A stretch of 64,000 nt of DNA from Paenibacillus sp. V4I7. Lineage in GTDB: Bacteria > Bacillota > Bacilli > Paenibacillales > NBRC-103111. The translations under genes and the position numbers were made by a program. Shown here piece after piece: positions 21,995 to 50,165 of this stretch (positions are counted from its first letter, which is position 1; each line of letters begins with the position of its first letter). Under the pieces are notes generated by a model. It was not told the DNA's origin, did not search any database, and saw only the letters and a list, made by a program, of their open reading frames with translations. The stretch covers positions 5,642,001 to 5,706,000 of the forward strand of contig NZ_JAUSZD010000002.1 in the NCBI RefSeq assembly GCF_030817275.1, given 5' to 3'.

Positions 21995-22438
21995 TTAAAA
22001 CTTCTTATACGGCAGAAACTTGCCGTTTAATGTGACGATTACACGATCGCCATTCGGATCTTCTCTCTTGTCAATATGCATCTCATAGTCAATGGCGCTC
22101 ATAATACCATCCCCGAACTTCTCGTTCAGAATTTCTTTGAAAGCAGGACCATACACCATGATAATCTCATATAATCTATATAACGCTGGCTCCGAAGGGG
22201 GCATCTGTATGGCGTTCCCGCGAAACGGAGGTGTCGTCAACGAAGCAGTAACTTCCGGACTCAACGCCAAGATTTCACCGACTTTGGCTGCTTGCTCAGG
22301 TGCCATCGTCGCTTGACCCAATAAAGCAGTCGCAACCCAAACCTCAGCTGCCCCGACTCGCTCAGCAATTTCCTGCCAAGATAGCTTCTTCTCGGCTTTA
22401 GCCTGCAAAATAATCATTGTGCTGTTTGTTCTGTCCAT
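21995..22438 (-). CDS. cynS: Cyanate hydratase (cyanase)
   Basis: A 147-residue cyanase, which converts cyanate and bicarbonate to ammonia and CO2. The N-terminal helical domain is followed by the catalytic domain with Arg and Glu in 'YRLYEI' and Ser in 'GDGIMSAIDYEMHID'; their spacing (R, R+3, R+26) equals that of Arg96, Glu99 and Ser122 of the E. coli enzyme. The start ATG 22438 lies 10 nt after GGAGG; the GTG 6 nt upstream is too close to it. It is the last gene of an operon with an NrtA/CynA-type importer and tatA-tatC, so cytosolic detoxification and nitrogen release from imported cyanate is the natural role. Confidence 0.96.
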   Translation of the reverse strand: MDRTNSTMIILQAKAEKKLSWQEIAERVGAAEVWVATALLGQATMAPEQAAKVGEILALSPEVTASLTTPPFRGNAIQMPPSEPALYRLYEIIMVYGPAFKEILNEKFGDGIMSAIDYEMHIDKREDPNGDRVIVTLNGKFLPYKKF

Positions 22439-22471
22439 CTTCACACAACCTCCGATATAAACAGATAAGGG

Positions 22472-23206
22472 TTATACCAACTGCTTTTGGGTTAGTCCCG
22501 TTTTGACTTGTTTACGAATTACCCCTACAGATAACAGGATGCTGATTTCATACAGTAATAACATCGGTAAAATAACGAGAACATCGGACAATAAATCGGG
22601 AGGTGACAAAACAACCGACATTACGATGAGTATGAAGTAGGCATATTTCCGTGATTTTCTTAGCAGTTGTGGTTTGAGTAACCCAAGGTATGTCAAAAAC
22701 ATGACAACCGCTGGAAGTTCAAATAATACAGCGATGGGAACCGTTAATCGAAACATGAATGTAAAATATCCGCTCACTGTATACATCGTTTGAAACTGAT
22801 TTTCCGCCAACCCCATCAAAAAATTCATGACCATTGGAAAGAGGATGAAGAAACTAAAACTTAAGCCCGTAATAAACAAAAAAAACAAACCAGGAATAAA
22901 CGCGAGCGTGGCTTTTTTTGCATTCTCAGGCATCGCCGGAACCATGAATTTCCATACTTGGTATGTGATTAAAGGGATCGTCAAACACAGTGCAGAAGTG
23001 GCAGCTATTGCGAAATACACCCAAACCACATCACCTGGACTGAGAATCGTTAATTTTCCATTGACACCCTTTATGAGAAATTGATAAATATCCCCCACGA
23101 ATAAAAAAGAAAAGAGGAAAAACACAAGAAAGCCAACTCCGCTAACGATGATACGTATACGAAGCTCTTCCATGTGATCAACCAATGACATTGTTTTATC
23201 CATCAT
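22472..23206 (-). CDS. tatC: Twin-arginine translocase subunit TatC
   Basis: A 244-residue six-TM protein and the receptor of the Tat pathway, which exports folded proteins. Conserved marks are 'MSLVDHMEELRIRI' at the N-terminus, 'FAIAATSALCLTIPLITYQVWKF' in two parts, 'FIPGLFFLFITGLSFSFF' and 'FRLTVPIAVLFELPAVVMFL'. It lies between tatA and cynS in the cyanate-type operon, an unusual place for translocase genes. It may serve the whole cell or mainly the operon's own cargo. Confidence 0.95.
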   Translation of the reverse strand: MMDKTMSLVDHMEELRIRIIVSGVGFLVFFLFSFLFVGDIYQFLIKGVNGKLTILSPGDVVWVYFAIAATSALCLTIPLITYQVWKFMVPAMPENAKKATLAFIPGLFFLFITGLSFSFFILFPMVMNFLMGLAENQFQTMYTVSGYFTFMFRLTVPIAVLFELPAVVMFLTYLGLLKPQLLRKSRKYAYFILIVMSVVLSPPDLLSDVLVILPMLLLYEISILLSVGVIRKQVKTGLTQKQLV

Positions 23207-23314: not shown

Positions 23315-23512
23315 TCATACTTTGTGATCAGATGTTTTCCCTTCTATTTCCTTTTCATCAAGACTCTGAAAGACCTCACGGGAACCTTTTTTAAATTCCG
23401 ACAACGTCCTTCCGAAAGCACTGCCAATCTCAGGCAGCTTGCGTGGCCCAAAAATGACAAGAGCAATAATGAGAATTAATATCAGACCGGGAACCCCTAT
23501 ATTACTTATCAT
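23315..23512 (-). CDS. tatA: Twin-arginine translocase subunit TatA
   Basis: A 65-residue TatA/E protein: a single N-terminal TM ('[18 protein letters not shown]'), the '[20 protein letters not shown]' hinge and amphipathic helix, and a charged tail. It oligomerises as the Tat pore with TatC. It follows the ATPase gene of the importer by about 45 bp and precedes tatC by about 110 bp, consistent with one transcript. Confidence 0.95.
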
Positions 23513-23557: not shown

Positions 23558-24379
23558 TTACCTCATTTCAACGGCCGATTTGCCGTGAAGATACTCCAGC
23601 AATTCATCTTTCAGGTCGTTATAAACGGACTGATGAATCACTTCGCGCCGTACACGGGGACGTTTGATCGGAACGGTGATGACCGTCTCCACGGTTGCGG
23701 ACGGGCCATTAGTCATCACTACGATCCGGTCGGATAAAAGAATCGCTTCATCAATATCGTGGGTCACCATGATAACGGTATCTGTACCGCCCTTAGAACT
23801 GTCATCGCCATTACCGTCTTCCGTGGGCTTCCACAGGCTGACAAGCTCATCTTGAAGACTGGCCCGCGTGAGTGCGTCCAACGCGCCGAAGGGTTCATCA
23901 AGAAGAAGCACCTGGGGGCCAACCGCGAATGCGCGTGCAATGGCTGCGCGCTGCTTCATACCGCCGGAGATCTCATCTGGCCGCTTATGCCGGTGCTTCC
24001 ACAATCCGACCACACTGAGATAATGCTCGACAATAGCGTTCTTTTCAACCCGTGAACGATCGGGAAAAACGGCGTCTACAACCTCGTAAACATTCCCCCA
24101 TACCGTGAGCCACGGCAAGAGAGAGTAGTTCTGAAAGACGACGCCTCTGTCGGGACCGGGACCGGTAACAGGCGACCCGCCCAGGAGTACCTTACCGGTC
24201 GTTTGTTTCTCCAGTCCGGCGACGATATTGAGAATCGTCGATTTACCGCACCCCGAGTGTCCGATCAAGGAAACGAACTCTCCTCTTTCGATGTTCAAGT
24301 TGATATTTTGGAGGACTTGGAAATCGCCCTTCTTTGTTGGATATACCTTGCTGATGTTCTCTAAGCTCAGATAGGACAT
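23558..24379 (-). CDS. ABC importer ATPase, nitrate/cyanate type
   Basis: A 273-residue ATPase of the NitT/TauT (NrtD/CynD/SsuB) group. Walker A is 'GHSGCGKST', the Q-loop region 'FQNYSLLPWLTVWGNV', signature 'ISGGMKQR', Walker B 'LLLDEPFGALD' and the switch His in 'VTHDIDEA'. The start at 24379 is preferred: GGGGGGTGACGGA precedes the ATG, and longer starts run into the permease gene. It energises uptake through the permease encoded just upstream. GC content here is visibly higher than in neighbouring loci. Confidence 0.92.
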   Translation of the reverse strand: MSYLSLENISKVYPTKKGDFQVLQNINLNIERGEFVSLIGHSGCGKSTILNIVAGLEKQTTGKVLLGGSPVTGPGPDRGVVFQNYSLLPWLTVWGNVYEVVDAVFPDRSRVEKNAIVEHYLSVVGLWKHRHKRPDEISGGMKQRAAIARAFAVGPQVLLLDEPFGALDALTRASLQDELVSLWKPTEDGNGDDSSKGGTDTVIMVTHDIDEAILLSDRIVVMTNGPSATVETVITVPIKRPRVRREVIHQSVYNDLKDELLEYLHGKSAVEMR

Positions 24380-24383
24380 TCCG

Positions 24384-25238
24384 TCACCCCCCATAGTTGA
24401 ATCGTTTTTCGATATAATGAAAGCCTCGATCCAAAACAAGACCGACTAGGCCGATGAGCACGATAGCGGAGATGACCCGTTCCAGACTGAGCGCATTCCA
24501 GCTATCCCAGACGAAGAACCCGATACCAGTTCCGCCTGAAAGCATTTCTGCTGCGACGATCACCATCCAGGCGATTCCAAGACTCAGCCGCAGACCGGTA
24601 AGGATATACGGCAAAGAGAAGGGAATAAGCACCTTTGTCAGGTACTTCCATCTCGAAAAGCGGAAGACCGCAGCTACGTTTCGGTGGTCCTTAGGAACCG
24701 ACGCGACGCCGAGGGCAGTGTTCACGACCGTCGGCCACAGCGACGTGATGAAGATAATAAAGATCGTGGCCGGACCAACCGAATGAAATACGGCCAGCCC
24801 AATGGGGAACCAGGCCAACGGGGACACTGGTCTGAGCACTTGGACAATCGGGCCTAAGAGATTTCTAAAGAATGGCGTCGCACCCATGACGATCCCTAGC
24901 GGCACCGCAACTAGCGCGCCCAATAGGAATCCGGTGAACACCCGCATCAGCGAGGCGACAAACTGCAGCCCAATCCCCTTATCGTTAGGTCCGTAGTTAT
25001 AAAACGGGTTGGCGACAAGCTCCCAGAAAGTGGCTAGCGTACTCATGGGACCAGGAAGTGCTTTACCTGAGAAGCGGCTCGTCACCTCCCACAACAGAAT
25101 GAGGAGCGCCATGCTCCCGATCAAGTAACCTGTCTTGTGCAGCCCGTTCGTCAGGCCGTTCTTCCAGTGGGGGGGGAAAGCGAGACGTTTCGCTGATAAC
25201 ACCGTATGCGTGACACTTTGTTCCATTTGCTTACTCAT
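24384..25238 (-). CDS. ABC importer permease, NrtB/CynB type
   Basis: A 284-residue membrane permease of the NitT/TauT class with about six helices and the EAA loop 'VASVPKDHRNVAAVFRFSRW' followed by 'KVLIPFSLPYILTGLRLSLG'. ATG 25238 lies 9 nt after GGAGG, which overlaps the end of the binding-protein gene. It ends 4 nt before the ATPase start. It forms the channel for nitrate, cyanate or a similar small anion. Confidence 0.92.
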   Translation of the reverse strand: MSKQMEQSVTHTVLSAKRLAFPPHWKNGLTNGLHKTGYLIGSMALLILLWEVTSRFSGKALPGPMSTLATFWELVANPFYNYGPNDKGIGLQFVASLMRVFTGFLLGALVAVPLGIVMGATPFFRNLLGPIVQVLRPVSPLAWFPIGLAVFHSVGPATIFIIFITSLWPTVVNTALGVASVPKDHRNVAAVFRFSRWKYLTKVLIPFSLPYILTGLRLSLGIAWMVIVAAEMLSGGTGIGFFVWDSWNALSLERVISAIVLIGLVGLVLDRGFHYIEKRFNYGG

Positions 25239-25243
25239 CGCGA

Positions 25244-26518
25244 TCAACCTCCGTATTGTTTTAACGAACCAGCCGGATCTTTCGGGTCAAATGTAGCGCC
25301 ATCCAATTTAAGCTGGAACGGCTTCATGTCGTCGTCGGGAATGGCTATCTTCATTTCGCCCGCGACCTCGCGGTACAGGTCTTTCATGATCAGCTTGTCG
25401 GCAATCTCCTCGTATTTCGGGTGTTCGTTCAAGTATTTGAACCGGACGTACTGGCTCATAAAGAACATGGCATGAGCTTTGCGCGGAAAGTTCACACTAC
25501 CGTCCTTGTGAAAAAGCATGTAGTCGTCCTTGTAGACGTGTTCGCCCAGGTCAGCGCCAAGATCGTATTTACCGAGCAAGCGATTCTCGATCGTTTCGGC
25601 TGGGGCGTTAACGTAGGCCTGATGGCCGATCACCTTGGCAGCCTCTTTGCGGTTATCCAAATTATCGAGCCACTTCGACGCTTCGAGGATGGCCTTCATG
25701 ACGGCCTTCACCTCATCGGTGCGGCCACTCCAAGCCTTGTTGAGGACGAGAGCCTTCTCGGGGTGATCCTTCCAGATGTCCTGGGTGGAAATATGAGTGA
25801 ATCCTATTTTCTGCGCGACAGCCACTCCACCCCAAGGTTCACCCACGCAGTACCCATCCATATTGCCCACTTTCATGTTGGCAACCATCTGCGGCGGCGG
25901 GATCGTGATGATCTTTACCTTGGTCTGGTTTATTCCAGCCGCCCCCAACCAGTAGCGAAGCCACAGGTCATGCGTTCCCCCGGGGAAGGTCATGGCAAAA
26001 GTCGTCTCGCGCTCTGCCATTTTCTTTTCGATAATACGCTTGGCCGCCTTCAGGTCTCGAAAGCCGGCATCTTTGAACTCGTTGGAAAGTGTAATCGCCT
26101 GTCCGTTCGTGTTGAGCATCATCGCGATCGGCAACTCGCTGCCGGCCGTACCGCCGACCCCAGTGTAGACGGAGAACGGCATACCGAAGAGACAGTGAGA
26201 CGCATTCAGATCTCCGGAGAGCAATTTATCACGTACCGCAGCCCATGAAGCTTCCTTGGTAACTTCCACGTCCACGCCGTATTTCTTAAAGAGGCCGAGT
26301 TCTTTAGCCATGACGACCGAAGCACAATCCGTCAGCGGAATGAAACCAATCTTGATCTTATTTCCCAGCATTGGGGTTGCGCTGTTTGAAACAGTCTTTA
26401 TCTGTTCAGTCTTATTTACTCCGCATGCGGCAAGCAGGGCGCTAGGTACCAGCAATGCGGCTCCAGCCATACCCGTCTTTTTCAAGAAATCTAGTCTCGT
26501 CATCTTATTCTCGCTCAT
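25244..26518 (-). CDS. NrtA/CynA-type substrate-binding lipoprotein
   Basis: A 424-residue binding protein of the NrtA/CmpA/CynA family (nitrate, bicarbonate or cyanate). Family signatures are 'KIGFIPLTDCASVVMAKELG', 'KEASWAAVRDKLLSGDL', 'LNTNGQAITLS', 'TFPGGTHDLWLRYWL' and 'GYCVGEPWGG'. The N-terminus has 'TRLDFLKKTG' then a hydrophobic stretch and lipobox 'LLAAC'. That leader resembles a Tat signal (S/T-R-R-x-F-L-K) with Leu in place of the second Arg. The ATG follows GGGAGAG. Cyanase in the same operon favours cyanate as the ligand; nitrate cannot be excluded from sequence alone. Confidence 0.92.
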   Translation of the reverse strand: MSENKMTRLDFLKKTGMAGAALLVPSALLAACGVNKTEQIKTVSNSATPMLGNKIKIGFIPLTDCASVVMAKELGLFKKYGVDVEVTKEASWAAVRDKLLSGDLNASHCLFGMPFSVYTGVGGTAGSELPIAMMLNTNGQAITLSNEFKDAGFRDLKAAKRIIEKKMAERETTFAMTFPGGTHDLWLRYWLGAAGINQTKVKIITIPPPQMVANMKVGNMDGYCVGEPWGGVAVAQKIGFTHISTQDIWKDHPEKALVLNKAWSGRTDEVKAVMKAILEASKWLDNLDNRKEAAKVIGHQAYVNAPAETIENRLLGKYDLGADLGEHVYKDDYMLFHKDGSVNFPRKAHAMFFMSQYVRFKYLNEHPKYEEIADKLIMKDLYREVAGEMKIAIPDDDMKPFQLKLDGATFDPKDPAGSLKQYGG

Positions 26519-26597
26519 CGGATCTCTCCCTCATCATCGTCAAGTGAAACAATTTGATTTCTTCGTTTATAAACTTAAATAAAATTGCAAGCTTCAT
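26505..26597 (-). CDS. Candidate leader peptide (uORF, 30 aa)
   Basis: An ATG at 26597 preceded by AGGAAGGGAACAA opens a 30-codon frame, 'MKLAILFKFINEEIKLFHLT' and 'MMRERSDERE', that runs past the start of the NrtA-type gene and stops 14 nt inside it. Ribosomes finishing it could reinitiate at the overlapping start, so it may couple or tune translation. It has no recognised domain. The good Shine-Dalgarno and overlap are direct observations; a regulatory role is inference, and it may be chance. Confidence 0.4.
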   Translation of the reverse strand: MKLAILFKFINEEIKLFHLTMMRERSDERE

Positions 26598-26675: not shown

Positions 26676-26760
26676 CAAAAAGAGCCCTGCACAAACTCTC
26701 CCCATTCTGTCCCATAGCCAATCATGCGACGCGAATTGAAAAAAAGTGAATGCAGGGCTC
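26676..26760 (-). promoter_or_regulatory. Leader attenuator-like hairpin before nrtA-type gene
   Basis: On the minus strand GAGCCCTGCA and TGCAGGGCTC pair perfectly (10 bp) around a 59-nt loop and are followed by TTTTTGATC, so the structure can terminate the 5' leader about 160 nt before the first gene. The loop holds a 16-codon frame from ATG 26725 ('MIGYGTEWGEFVQGSF') without a clear Shine-Dalgarno. I do not recognise a known riboswitch or ANTAR-target structure. Confidence 0.6.
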
Positions 26761-26802
26761 CATTGCCCTAAGTAATGCCGACCTAATTGTCAACATCACC
26801 TA

Positions 26803-26819
26803 TGTTACTATTCATAACA
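26803..26819. promoter_or_regulatory. GlnR/TnrA box, downstream site
   Basis: TGTTACTATTCATAACA matches the GlnR/TnrA consensus TGTNA-N7-TNACA at every fixed position. It lies about 55 nt downstream of the predicted transcription start of the cyanate-type operon, a repression-type position. Confidence 0.65.
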
Positions 26820-26871
26820 TAAATAACTAAATATTAACTACTCTGTTCCTCGTAGGTGTTTTATATTTATT

Positions 26872-26899
26872 ATTCTATCCAAAAAATACAATTAGTCAA
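26872..26899 (-). promoter_or_regulatory. Promoter of the cyanate/nitrate-type operon
   Basis: Minus-strand TTGACT (26899-26894), a 16-nt spacer and TAGAAT (26877-26872). Predicted start is near 26865, giving a leader of about 345 nt. Confidence 0.65.
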
Positions 26900-26907
26900 G
26901 ACATTTG

Positions 26908-26924
26908 TGTTATGTTATTTAACA
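26908..26924. promoter_or_regulatory. GlnR/TnrA box, upstream site
   Basis: TGTTATGTTATTTAACA matches TGTNA-N7-TNACA fully. Its centre is about 50 nt upstream of the predicted start, the position from which TnrA/GlnR-type regulators activate. Confidence 0.7.
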
Positions 26925-27064: not shown

Positions 27065-27192
27065 AAAAAAAGGGACCTAGCCAACGGGGCCAGGTCCAAA
27101 GTTTATATTAAAAAAGGGGGGTCTTGTTAATTATAATACACCTACTTTGTTAGAGAACTGTAACAGGAATGTTCCAATTGTGTTACAAAAAA
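27065..27192 (-). repeat. Dispersed repeat copy A / candidate small RNA
   Basis: This block matches 43068-43200 in the same orientation over about 130 bp. On the minus strand it reads: a conserved box (TGTAACA...TGTTACA arms), TATAAT (27135-27130), then a transcript-like segment AAGACCCCCC, T-run, AATATAAACTTT and the hairpin GGACCTGGCCCCGTTGGCTAGGTCC followed by CCTTTTTTT (given here in parts of the same stem). That layout suits an sRNA of about 60 nt with its own promoter and terminator. The C-rich 5' end is complementary to Shine-Dalgarno sequences. The repeat is observed; the RNA is inferred. Confidence 0.55.
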
Positions 27193-27217
27193 GCGATTCT
27201 ATTCGAATCGCTTTTTT
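27186..27217. terminator. hairpin upstream of erythromycin-esterase-like gene
   Basis: AAAAAAGCGATT-ctattcg-AATCGCTTTTTT, a symmetric intrinsic terminator 60 nt before the GTG at 27277. It may insulate the gene or act as an attenuator. Confidence 0.75.
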
Positions 27218-27276
27218 GTAATGGATTTTTTGTACATACTACAGAATGTAAATCTTTAGGAATAGGGGTTAAACAA

Positions 27277-48842: not shown

Positions 48843-49862
48843 TTATTTCTTACGTTCCTTCAGCACTTCTTCTACAAAGTGTCCATCTAAGAAGCTTTCC
48901 GCCTTCGGAATGGAAGTCAGCATATCTAATCCCTTTAAGAACTCGGCCGTCTTCTGCGAAGTAAAGTGTAGGGATTCTAAGTTATCGCCCTTTTGGAAAG
49001 CTTTCACATTATCTTCAAGTTGGAAAATTTTCACGCTATCCACGCCAGCTTTATATTCATCAACCGGCGTCTCTGCTGCTTTTGCCATTATATTCAATGA
49101 CTCTTCTGGATTGGCCTTCCAGTAATCCAAAGCGTCGAACCAAGCGTTGATGATTTTTTTCACATCTTCCGGACGATTCTTCGTTATTTCTTCTTTGAAA
49201 ACTAGCAGATCAGGGATAAGTCCGGGTGTATCCTTGGAGGAAAATAATAACTTACCTTTGCCCTCTTGAATCGCCTTGCTTAGGAATGGCTCCCATAGTA
49301 CCGCGGCGTCCAGGTTGCCTGAAATGAAAGCAGGTCCTGCATCGTTAACTGTCATATTCGTATAAGCAACATCTTTCTCGGCAAGCCCGGCCTTTTCAAG
49401 TGCAGTTAGCATCAGAAGGTGATCAACCGTTCCCAGCTCAGTCGCTACTTTCTTCCCCTTCAAATCCTTCAATGAATGAATGCTCGGCTTCACAACAACA
49501 CCGTCTCCGCCATTGGAGTTATCGTTCACCAGCACTGCCTTGAGTTTAATTCCTTTACTTGCTGGAGCAAGTGTATCACTTAACGTTTGGCTGTTCGCAT
49601 CGACTTTACCAGACGCTAATGCTGATAAGGAATCGCTATATACCGGGAACCAAATGAGATCAACATTAACCCCATTTTTCTCAAAGAACCCCTTTTCCTT
49701 CACTAAATACCACACAAACCAACCTGGCCATGGACTGAGTGCTAATTTAATCGGTTCTCCGCTTTTTCCTGTAGTGCCAGTTGCCCCTTTGCTCGTACAT
49801 CCGCTAACTACTGTAAAAATCAATAACAACGCCATCATCAGGAATACCACTCTTTGTCTCAT
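48843..49862 (-). CDS. Substrate-binding lipoprotein, guanidine-riboswitch importer
   Basis: A 339-residue NMT1/NrtA/TauA-like binding protein. The signal peptide 'MRQRVVFLMMALLLIFTV' leads to lipobox 'VSGC'. The mature fold shows 'IKLALSPWPGWFVWYLVKEK', 'VDANSQTLSDTLAPASKGI', 'LKGKKVATELGTVDHLLML' and 'NLDAAVLWEPFLSKAI'. I choose ATG 49862 because the ATG at 49880 lies on the Shine-Dalgarno GAGGGAG. Databases usually call such proteins nitrate/sulfonate/taurine binding, but the guanidine-I aptamer upstream points to guanidine or a guanidine-related compound. Confidence 0.9.
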   Translation of the reverse strand: MRQRVVFLMMALLLIFTVVSGCTSKGATGTTGKSGEPIKLALSPWPGWFVWYLVKEKGFFEKNGVNVDLIWFPVYSDSLSALASGKVDANSQTLSDTLAPASKGIKLKAVLVNDNSNGGDGVVVKPSIHSLKDLKGKKVATELGTVDHLLMLTALEKAGLAEKDVAYTNMTVNDAGPAFISGNLDAAVLWEPFLSKAIQEGKGKLLFSSKDTPGLIPDLLVFKEEITKNRPEDVKKIINAWFDALDYWKANPEESLNIMAKAAETPVDEYKAGVDSVKIFQLEDNVKAFQKGDNLESLHFTSQKTAEFLKGLDMLTSIPKAESFLDGHFVEEVLKERKK

Positions 49863-49890
49863 TCCGATCTCCCTCTCCATTTGTAATGGT

Positions 49891-50032
49891 AAAAAGAAAA
49901 GCCCGGAACGATATCATATTCTGATATCCTCCCGGGCTTTTATCCCTCCGTGTGCACGATGAAGCTCACCGTGTGTCTTCTCTTGGACCTGACCAACAGC
50001 CTTCATTCTGTCGCGGAACCCTAGAAAACAAG
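49891..50032 (-). ncRNA. Guanidine-I (ykkC) riboswitch with terminator
   Basis: The minus strand carries the ykkC subtype-1 core in order: TTTTCTAGGGTTCCGC, GGTCCAAGAGAAGACACACGG, CACACGGAGGGATAAAAGCC and CCGGGAG. The 3' strand AAAAGCCCGG can instead pair with CCGGGCTTTT, followed by CTTTTT, to form an intrinsic terminator (49891-49941). Guanidine binding should stabilise the aptamer and stop termination, turning on the importer genes downstream. Compared with the B. subtilis ykkC RNA the GGUCCGAGAG segment has one G-to-A change. The aptamer match is strong; ligand identity rests on the family. Confidence 0.93.
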
Positions 50033-50074
50033 TTTGCTATGAGGTTGGTACTTCGATGTCTTACATTTGTCTTA

Positions 50075-50103
50075 ATCATACTTACATCCGAGTTGTATGT
50101 CAA
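50075..50103 (-). promoter_or_regulatory. Promoter of the guanidine-type operon
   Basis: Minus-strand TTGACA (50103-50098), 17-nt spacer and TATGAT (50080-50075). Near-perfect vegetative promoter about 45 nt before the aptamer. Confidence 0.85.
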
Positions 50104-50114
50104 TATATATAACA
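50098..50114. promoter_or_regulatory. GlnR/TnrA box over the -35
   Basis: TGTCAATATATATAACA matches TGTNA-N7-TNACA fully and overlaps the -35 of the guanidine-type promoter, a repression-type position. Confidence 0.55.
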
Positions 50115-50148
50115 CAAATTAATAATTGGTTGCCAAAATAGCTGTATG

Positions 50149-50165
50149 TGTAATAATATATAACA
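50149..50165. promoter_or_regulatory. GlnR/TnrA box before the small gene
   Basis: TGTAATAATATATAACA matches TGTNA-N7-TNACA fully. It covers the predicted -10 (TAATAT, 50154-50159; -35 TTGCCA, 50130-50135) of the rightward small gene. Confidence 0.5.

What the first reader, a model, noticed from the sequence alone, without database searches (positions are those of the whole stretch)
26803..26924. Two perfect GlnR/TnrA boxes bracket the cyanate-type promoter
Seen: TGTNA-N7-TNACA matches at 26908-26924 (about -50 from the predicted start) and 26803-26819 (about +55), with a TTGACT-16-TAGAAT promoter between. Known: TnrA activates from about -50, and in Paenibacillus nif GlnR activates from an upstream site and represses from a downstream site. 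Inference: cyanate uptake and cyanase use the same two-site nitrogen switch.
Basis: partly seen in the sequence, partly recalled or inferred. Interest (0 to 1): 0.65.

Follow-up and report, generated by a model that had tools for sequence, protein, structure and literature searches.

The report
Nitrogen boxes plus RNA nitrate switch

Summary
Both TGTNA-N7-TNACA boxes are perfect and lie where stated (centres -51 and +54 from the predicted start). No shuffle of the local sequence gave two.

(1) The transporter looks like a nitrate transporter (NrtABC type), not a cyanate one: relatives sit beside nitrate reductase genes in 52 of 80 loci and beside cyanase in one. (2) The upstream box is conserved, on the same helix face, in two of three relatives. 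The downstream box is perfect only here. All three relatives have it, and the genome encodes an ANTAR protein beside its nitrate-reduction genes, whose leader carries two such motifs.

Of eleven ANTAR leaders in four species, nine have a perfect box within 250 nt, against 0.6% expected.

Best reading: a GlnR/TnrA-controlled promoter sets the nitrogen gate, and an ANTAR antiterminator sets the nitrate gate. Caveats: one loop here lacks the conserved G, a model built without this operon scores it weakly, and nothing was measured.

By-products: a conserved 22-aa ORF under the same double control, and GlnR boxes ahead of a guanidine riboswitch.

The parts
26908..26924 (.). upstream GlnR/TnrA box TGTTAAATAACATAACA, centre -51
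   Evidence: perfect counterparts in P. alkaliterrae (-72) and G131 (-82)
26872..26899 (-). sigma-A-type promoter TTGACT-16-TAGAAT
   Evidence: same hexamers and spacing in P. alkaliterrae
26803..26819 (.). downstream GlnR/TnrA box TGTTATGAATAGTAACA, centre +54; also a weak RNA hairpin
   Evidence: one-mismatch counterpart in P. alkaliterrae at the same distance from P2
26771..26800 (-). leader hairpin P1, 12 bp, hexaloop AAUUAG
   Evidence: hexaloop P1 in three orthologous leaders; loop here lacks the conserved G at position 4
26753..26770 (-). leader hairpin P2 (antiterminator), 6 bp, hexaloop AAUGGA
   Evidence: stem kept in 27 of 27 aligned motifs
26677..26760 (-). intrinsic terminator whose 5' arm GAGCCC overlaps the 3' arm of P2, then TTTTT
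   Evidence: -37.4 kcal/mol; architecture in 0 of 3000 shuffles
26505..26597 (-). 30-aa upstream ORF with Shine-Dalgarno, overlapping the nrtA start (possible translational coupling)
   Evidence: small ORFs ending on the nrtA start also readable in P. alkaliterrae and G131
25244..26518 (-). nrtA-like substrate-binding lipoprotein (NMT1_2)
24384..25247 (-). nrtB-like permease
   Evidence: TIGR01183 above cut-off
23558..24439 (-). nrtC/D-like ATPase (start codon uncertain)
   Evidence: TIGR01184 above cut-off
23315..23512 (-). tatA
22472..23206 (-). tatC
21995..22444 (-). cynS, cyanase

Best explanation
The operon is nrtABC-tatAC-cynS, a nitrate (perhaps also nitrite or cyanate) uptake operon with two serial gates. 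Gate 1 is at the promoter: when nitrogen is scarce a GlnR/TnrA-type protein bound at the -51 box helps RNA polymerase start; in nitrogen excess GlnR bound at the +54 box probably blocks elongation (this half is inferred). Gate 2 is in the leader RNA: by default the transcript folds the terminator at 26760-26677 and stops. When nitrate or nitrite is sensed, the ANTAR protein encoded beside the nas genes binds the P1/P2 hexaloop hairpins and holds P2, which shares its 3' arm with the terminator, so transcription continues. Shown: the boxes, hairpins, terminator overlap, conservation, the presence of GlnR and ANTAR genes, and the GlnR-ANTAR pairing across the nitrate genes. Inferred: binding, direction of each effect, and the inducing signal.
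For: Boxes confirmed. The leader folds with z = -7.4. The P1/P2/terminator arrangement is absent in 3000 shuffles and unique in the window. Three orthologous leaders have the same layout. The genome has one ANTAR gene beside narK-type transporter, nirB and molybdopterin oxidoreductase genes, the other in a locus read as eut. Tandem ANTAR motifs with a box on the -35 lie before the nas operon in nearly all of 28 genus genomes. Hairpins covary: 95.9% of cells paired, 37 two-sided changes against 11.5 in shuffles, far above slid controls. A nas-only model finds the second motif in the P. alkaliterrae and G131 nrt leaders at E about 1e-5. Nine of 11 ANTAR leaders have a perfect box within 250 nt, 0.6% expected. 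Rules for ANTAR RNAs: PMC3369931 and PMC8934654; GlnR dual sites: PMC6191146.
Against: The window's P1 loop AAUUAG lacks the G at position 4, which is important in EutV targets (PMC3369931). The nas-only model scores the window motif at only 11.7 bits, E 0.16. The downstream box is not perfect in any relative. cynS in the operon suggests that cyanate matters here. The ANTAR protein has no recognised nitrate-sensing domain. No expression or binding data exist.
Confidence: 0.7

Rival explanations
1. One reading: a cyanate uptake/cyanase operon controlled only by a two-site GlnR/TnrA switch as in Paenibacillus nif; the leader hairpins are an ordinary or constitutive structure.
For: cynS is the last gene; two perfect boxes flank the promoter; the nif precedent has an activating upstream and a repressing downstream site (PMC6191146).
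Against: The leader attenuator is conserved in three relatives and shared with the nas operon. Relatives of the transporter lie beside nitrate reductase in 52 of 80 loci and beside cyanase in 1. The downstream box is weak or absent in relatives.
Confidence: 0.12
2. GlnR/TnrA acts, but the attenuator of this particular operon has decayed or is read by another factor, because its first loop is non-canonical; the single terminator then sets a fixed basal level.
For: P1 loop AAUUAG lacks G4; nas-only model scores 11.7 bits; relatives P. alkaliterrae and G131 keep two motifs in series while the window keeps one.
Against: P1 (12 bp), P2 (loop A1/G4 intact) and a strong overlapping terminator are all intact. 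The P1 and P2 hairpins of eutP bind EutV with similar affinity on their own (PMC8934654). The P. alkaliterrae first motif also has one non-canonical loop.
Confidence: 0.13
3. The boxes are chance matches in AT-rich DNA.
For: Perfect matches genome-wide are only slightly more frequent than the reversed control pattern (166 against 146).
Against: Two in 195 bp occur in 0 of 5000 shuffles; upstream box conserved at helical spacing in two relatives; 9 of 11 ANTAR leaders have one.
Confidence: 0.03

Closest known systems
Klebsiella oxytoca nasF leader with NasR (ANTAR antitermination of nitrate assimilation)
   Same: Hexaloop hairpins overlapping an intrinsic terminator in the leader of nitrate genes; nitrate-released antitermination by an ANTAR protein is the proposed mechanism.
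   Different: NasR carries a NIT nitrate-sensing domain; the ANTAR protein here has none that Pfam or NCBIfam recognises and is encoded with a TrpD2-like protein. The promoter boxes here are of the GlnR/TnrA type of Bacillota.
Enterococcus faecalis eutP leader with EutV
   Same: Dual hexaloop motif, second hairpin overlapping the terminator.
   Different: Ethanolamine signal through a two-component system. The window's P1 loop lacks G4.
Paenibacillus polymyxa nif promoter with two GlnR sites
   Same: GlnR-type boxes on both sides of the promoter.
   Different: nif site II is 24 bp after the start site; here the downstream box is centred at +54. No leader attenuator was described in the passages read.
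P. polymyxa nasA, nasD1 and nasD2EF promoters bound by GlnR (PMC9948412)
   Same: GlnR-type boxes at nitrate assimilation promoters, one of nearly the same sequence as the nas box here.
   Different: That paper does not mention ANTAR control (0 occurrences); the transporter there is nasA, not an ABC type.

Membership tests
GlnR/TnrA-controlled promoter | TGTNA-N7-TNACA box(es) at promoter | tested here: met
   two 8/8 matches
GlnR/TnrA-controlled promoter | GlnR or TnrA encoded in the genome | tested here: met
   GlnR 137 aa before glnA; 78-aa TnrA-like protein, below the curated cut-off
GlnR/TnrA-controlled promoter | protein binding and nitrogen-dependent effect | not testable with these tools
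   needs bench work
Two-site GlnR activator/repressor switch (nif type) | activating site upstream of -35 | tested here: met
   sequence and position only; conserved in two of three relatives
Two-site GlnR activator/repressor switch (nif type) | repressing site downstream of the start | tested here: inconclusive
   perfect here, one mismatch in P. alkaliterrae, absent in G131 and G109
ANTAR antitermination leader | two tandem hexaloop hairpins | tested here: met
ANTAR antitermination leader | A at position 1 and G at position 4 of both loops | tested here: not met
   P2 AAUGGA fits; P1 AAUUAG has A1 but not G4. Both loops fit in G131 and G109
ANTAR antitermination leader | second hairpin overlaps an intrinsic terminator | tested here: met
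ANTAR antitermination leader | found by a model built from other members only | tested here: inconclusive
   11.7 bits, E 0.16 in 84 kb; second motifs of the orthologous leaders score 26-27 bits
ANTAR antitermination leader | ANTAR protein in the genome, linked to the pathway | tested here: met
NrtABC nitrate ABC transporter | permease and ATPase above curated nitrate-transporter cut-offs | tested here: met
   TIGR01183 239 against 209 bits, TIGR01184 319 against 292 bits
NrtABC nitrate ABC transporter | linked to nitrate reductase genes in relatives | tested here: met
   52 of 80 loci; not in the window itself
CynABD cyanate transporter | conserved linkage to cyanase | tested here: not met
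   1 of 80 loci; not found in the stretches of P. alkaliterrae, G131 and G109 searched

The most novel reading that the evidence does not exclude
In this group of Paenibacillales the nitrate genes form one regulon built on a serial AND gate, GlnR/TnrA at the promoter and an ANTAR antiterminator in the leader, read by an ANTAR protein with no NIT domain whose sensing partner is a TrpD2-like protein encoded in an overlapping gene. The regulon includes an undescribed 22-aa protein.
Probability: 0.3. Interest if true: 0.65.

Novelty: new variant of a known kind. Interest (0 to 1): 0.5.

Why it matters
It would put the two best-known logics of nitrate assimilation, general nitrogen control and nitrate-triggered antitermination, together in Gram-positive soil bacteria with GlnR/TnrA in the promoter role. 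It reassigns a 'cyanate' operon to nitrate and predicts a compact regulon with a testable microprotein and an unknown nitrate sensor.

Tried and rejected
Rfam has no family that matches either leader, so no ready ANTAR model was available; the low-scoring miRNA hits are artefacts of a long terminator hairpin at 27181-27223. Orthologs of the operon were sought in 104 family genomes and 395 order genomes and are rare, so covariation on the nrt leaders alone is not possible; the nas leaders carry most of it. The strict architecture scan did not recover the nas, G131 or G109 leaders, because its thresholds (5-bp P1, 30-nt linker limit, five T in eight) are too tight for them; it is used only as a chance estimate. 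A regex test for twin-arginine signals over the 79 other loci found none and was judged unreliable. A 10-codon reading frame running into P1 has no Shine-Dalgarno and was dropped. Whole-genome box counts were rejected as evidence because the excess over control is small. The guess of a guanidine riboswitch in the leader of this operon was rejected; the guanidine riboswitch in the window lies elsewhere.

Full report
Observation. On the minus strand the sequence reads: box TGTTAAATAACATAACA (26924-26908), 8 nt, TTGACT-16-TAGAAT (26899-26872), then box TGTTATGAATAGTAACA (26819-26803). Both boxes match all eight specified bases. With a start 7 nt after the -10 the centres are -51 and +54. Chance: in shuffles of the 195-bp AT-rich segment one box arises in 2.3% and two in none of 5000; in the 462-bp region two arise in 0.02%. 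A perfect match alone is weak evidence, since the genome has 166 against 146 for the reversed pattern.

The operon. Downstream lie a substrate-binding lipoprotein, a permease and an ATPase, then tatA, tatC and cynS. The permease and ATPase exceed the curated cut-offs of the nitrate transporter models TIGR01183 and TIGR01184. Among the 80 best relatives of the binding protein, 52 lie beside a molybdopterin oxidoreductase like the nas reductase of this genome, 20 beside a nirB relative, and one beside cyanase, in a locus that also has the reductase. The nearest relative, in P. alkaliterrae (82%), has tatC but no cynS; in G131 and G109 (76% and 73%) neither was found in the stretches searched. 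So nitrate is the likely substrate and cynS a local addition; cyanate as a second substrate is not excluded. The operon is rare: it is alone among 104 genomes of its family and one of 3 among 395 of its order.

The promoter boxes in relatives. P. alkaliterrae has TTGACT-16-TAGAAT with a perfect box at -72 and a one-mismatch box at +44. G131 has TTGACG-16-TAAAAT and a perfect box at -82. G109 has a one-mismatch box over the -35. The upstream centres differ by 21 and 10 bp, whole helical turns. The downstream box lies at the same distance (65 nt) from the end of hairpin P2 in the window and P. alkaliterrae. P. polymyxa nif has a weak activating site 58 bp above the -35 and a strong repressing site 24 bp below the start (PMC6191146). 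So the two-site idea is reasonable, but the repressing half is not shown to be conserved.

The missed leader switch. Between the downstream box and nrtA the RNA folds far better than shuffles (z = -7.4). P1 is a 12-bp hairpin with loop AAUUAG and P2 a 6-bp hairpin with loop AAUGGA. The 3' arm of P2, GAGCCC, is also the 5' arm of a strong terminator (-37.4 kcal/mol, followed by TTTTT). This is the layout of ANTAR target RNAs: two hexaloops, A at position 1 and G at position 4, the second hairpin overlapping the terminator (PMC3369931, PMC8934654). A search by fixed criteria found it once in the window and in none of 3000 shuffles. The orthologous leaders agree: P. alkaliterrae has P1 loop AAAGAU, P2 loop ACUAGA and a second motif with its own terminator; G131 has AAUGAC and AAAGGA, both canonical, and a second motif; G109 has AAAGUC in both loops and a terminator.

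The likely reader. The genome has two ANTAR genes. One is in a locus read by eye as ethanolamine utilisation. The other is divergent from a narK-type transporter, nirB and a molybdopterin oxidoreductase and occurs in 28 of 30 genus genomes. The leader between them carries two ANTAR motifs in series, both with terminators, and its GlnR box sits on the -35. The two genus genomes without this ANTAR gene give no or one weak hit with the motif model. Across 27 motifs, 95.9% of pair cells are standard and 37 are two-sided changes, against 80.5% and 11.5 in shuffles; slid controls fall to 31-47% paired. The set mixes nas and nrt leaders and is related by descent, so this is support, not proof.

Honest weak points. 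The window's P1 loop lacks G4. The model R1 that scores it at 37.1 bits includes it. A model from nas leaders alone (R2) gives it only 11.7 bits, E 0.16, while finding the second motifs of P. alkaliterrae and G131 at about 1e-5. By strict membership the window leader fails one ANTAR feature; the claim is that it works like one, backed by its orthologs.

The pairing is general. Of eleven ANTAR leaders in four species (own nas, nrt and a small ORF; P. alkaliterrae nasA, nirB, nrt; G131 nasA, nrt; G109 nasA, nirB, nrt), nine have a perfect box within 250 nt before the end of P2. Of the other two, G131 nrt has a perfect box just outside that stretch and G109 nrt has one with one mismatch. Shuffles give 0.56%. 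This is the strongest single argument that both layers are real.

Who binds the boxes. GlnR (137 aa) is encoded before glnA. There is also a 78-aa protein matching residues 6-77 of the 108-residue TnrA model at 111 bits, below the 140-bit cut-off, without the C-terminal tail, with a perfect box upstream of its gene. P. polymyxa has only GlnR (PMC9948412). Which one activates here is open.

Comparison. Nitrate-responsive ANTAR antitermination is known from Klebsiella nasF, and ANTAR motifs were reported before nitrate and nitrite transporter genes in diverse bacteria (PMC3369931). GlnR control of nas genes is known in P. polymyxa (PMC9948412). The combination of the two in Paenibacillales was not found in the searched library, which holds only open-licence papers. 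I rate it a new variant of a known kind.

Noticed in passing
G000:C2:6074430-6074600 (-), locus L144; also L183, L185-L188, L194, L218: A conserved 22-aa ORF (MMKRLKSIVLFIQCLPVALRWY and close variants in 8 of 30 genus genomes) directly follows a GlnR box on the -35, an ANTAR-type P1/P2 and a terminator: a candidate nitrate-regulon microprotein.
   Followed up: partly
window 49927-50165 and 48843-49880: A second ABC transporter operon (minus strand) has two perfect GlnR/TnrA boxes (50098-50114 on the -35, 50149-50165) and a guanidine-I riboswitch (RF00442, 88.4 bits) in its leader: the same logic of nitrogen-controlled promoter plus ligand-controlled leader.
   Followed up: partly
L003:8337-10015, L119, L087-L114: The nas-linked ANTAR gene overlaps a TrpD2-like gene (Glycos_transf_3) in this genome, and the pair is adjacent in P. 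alkaliterrae; the ANTAR protein has no recognised receiver or NIT domain, so the TrpD2-like protein is a candidate partner or sensor.
   Followed up: partly
L233:376-612 (G000:C2:4143875-4144111): 78-aa TnrA-like protein that ends before the C-terminal tail of the TnrA model, with a perfect GlnR/TnrA box upstream.
   Followed up: partly
window 26437-26518 (nrtA N-terminus): Orthologs begin with a twin-arginine motif (SRREFLKK, TRREFLKK, SRRDFLKK) and the operon carries tatAC, but the window protein reads TRLDFLKK, so one arginine is replaced.
   Followed up: no
window 26505-26597: 30-aa upstream ORF with a good Shine-Dalgarno overlapping the nrtA start; similarly placed small ORFs in P. alkaliterrae and G131 end on the nrtA start codon.
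   Followed up: partly
window 27073-27140 (-): TATAAT-like element followed about 40 nt later by a strong GC-rich terminator, upstream of the nrt promoter and with no ORF: possible short RNA.
   Followed up: no
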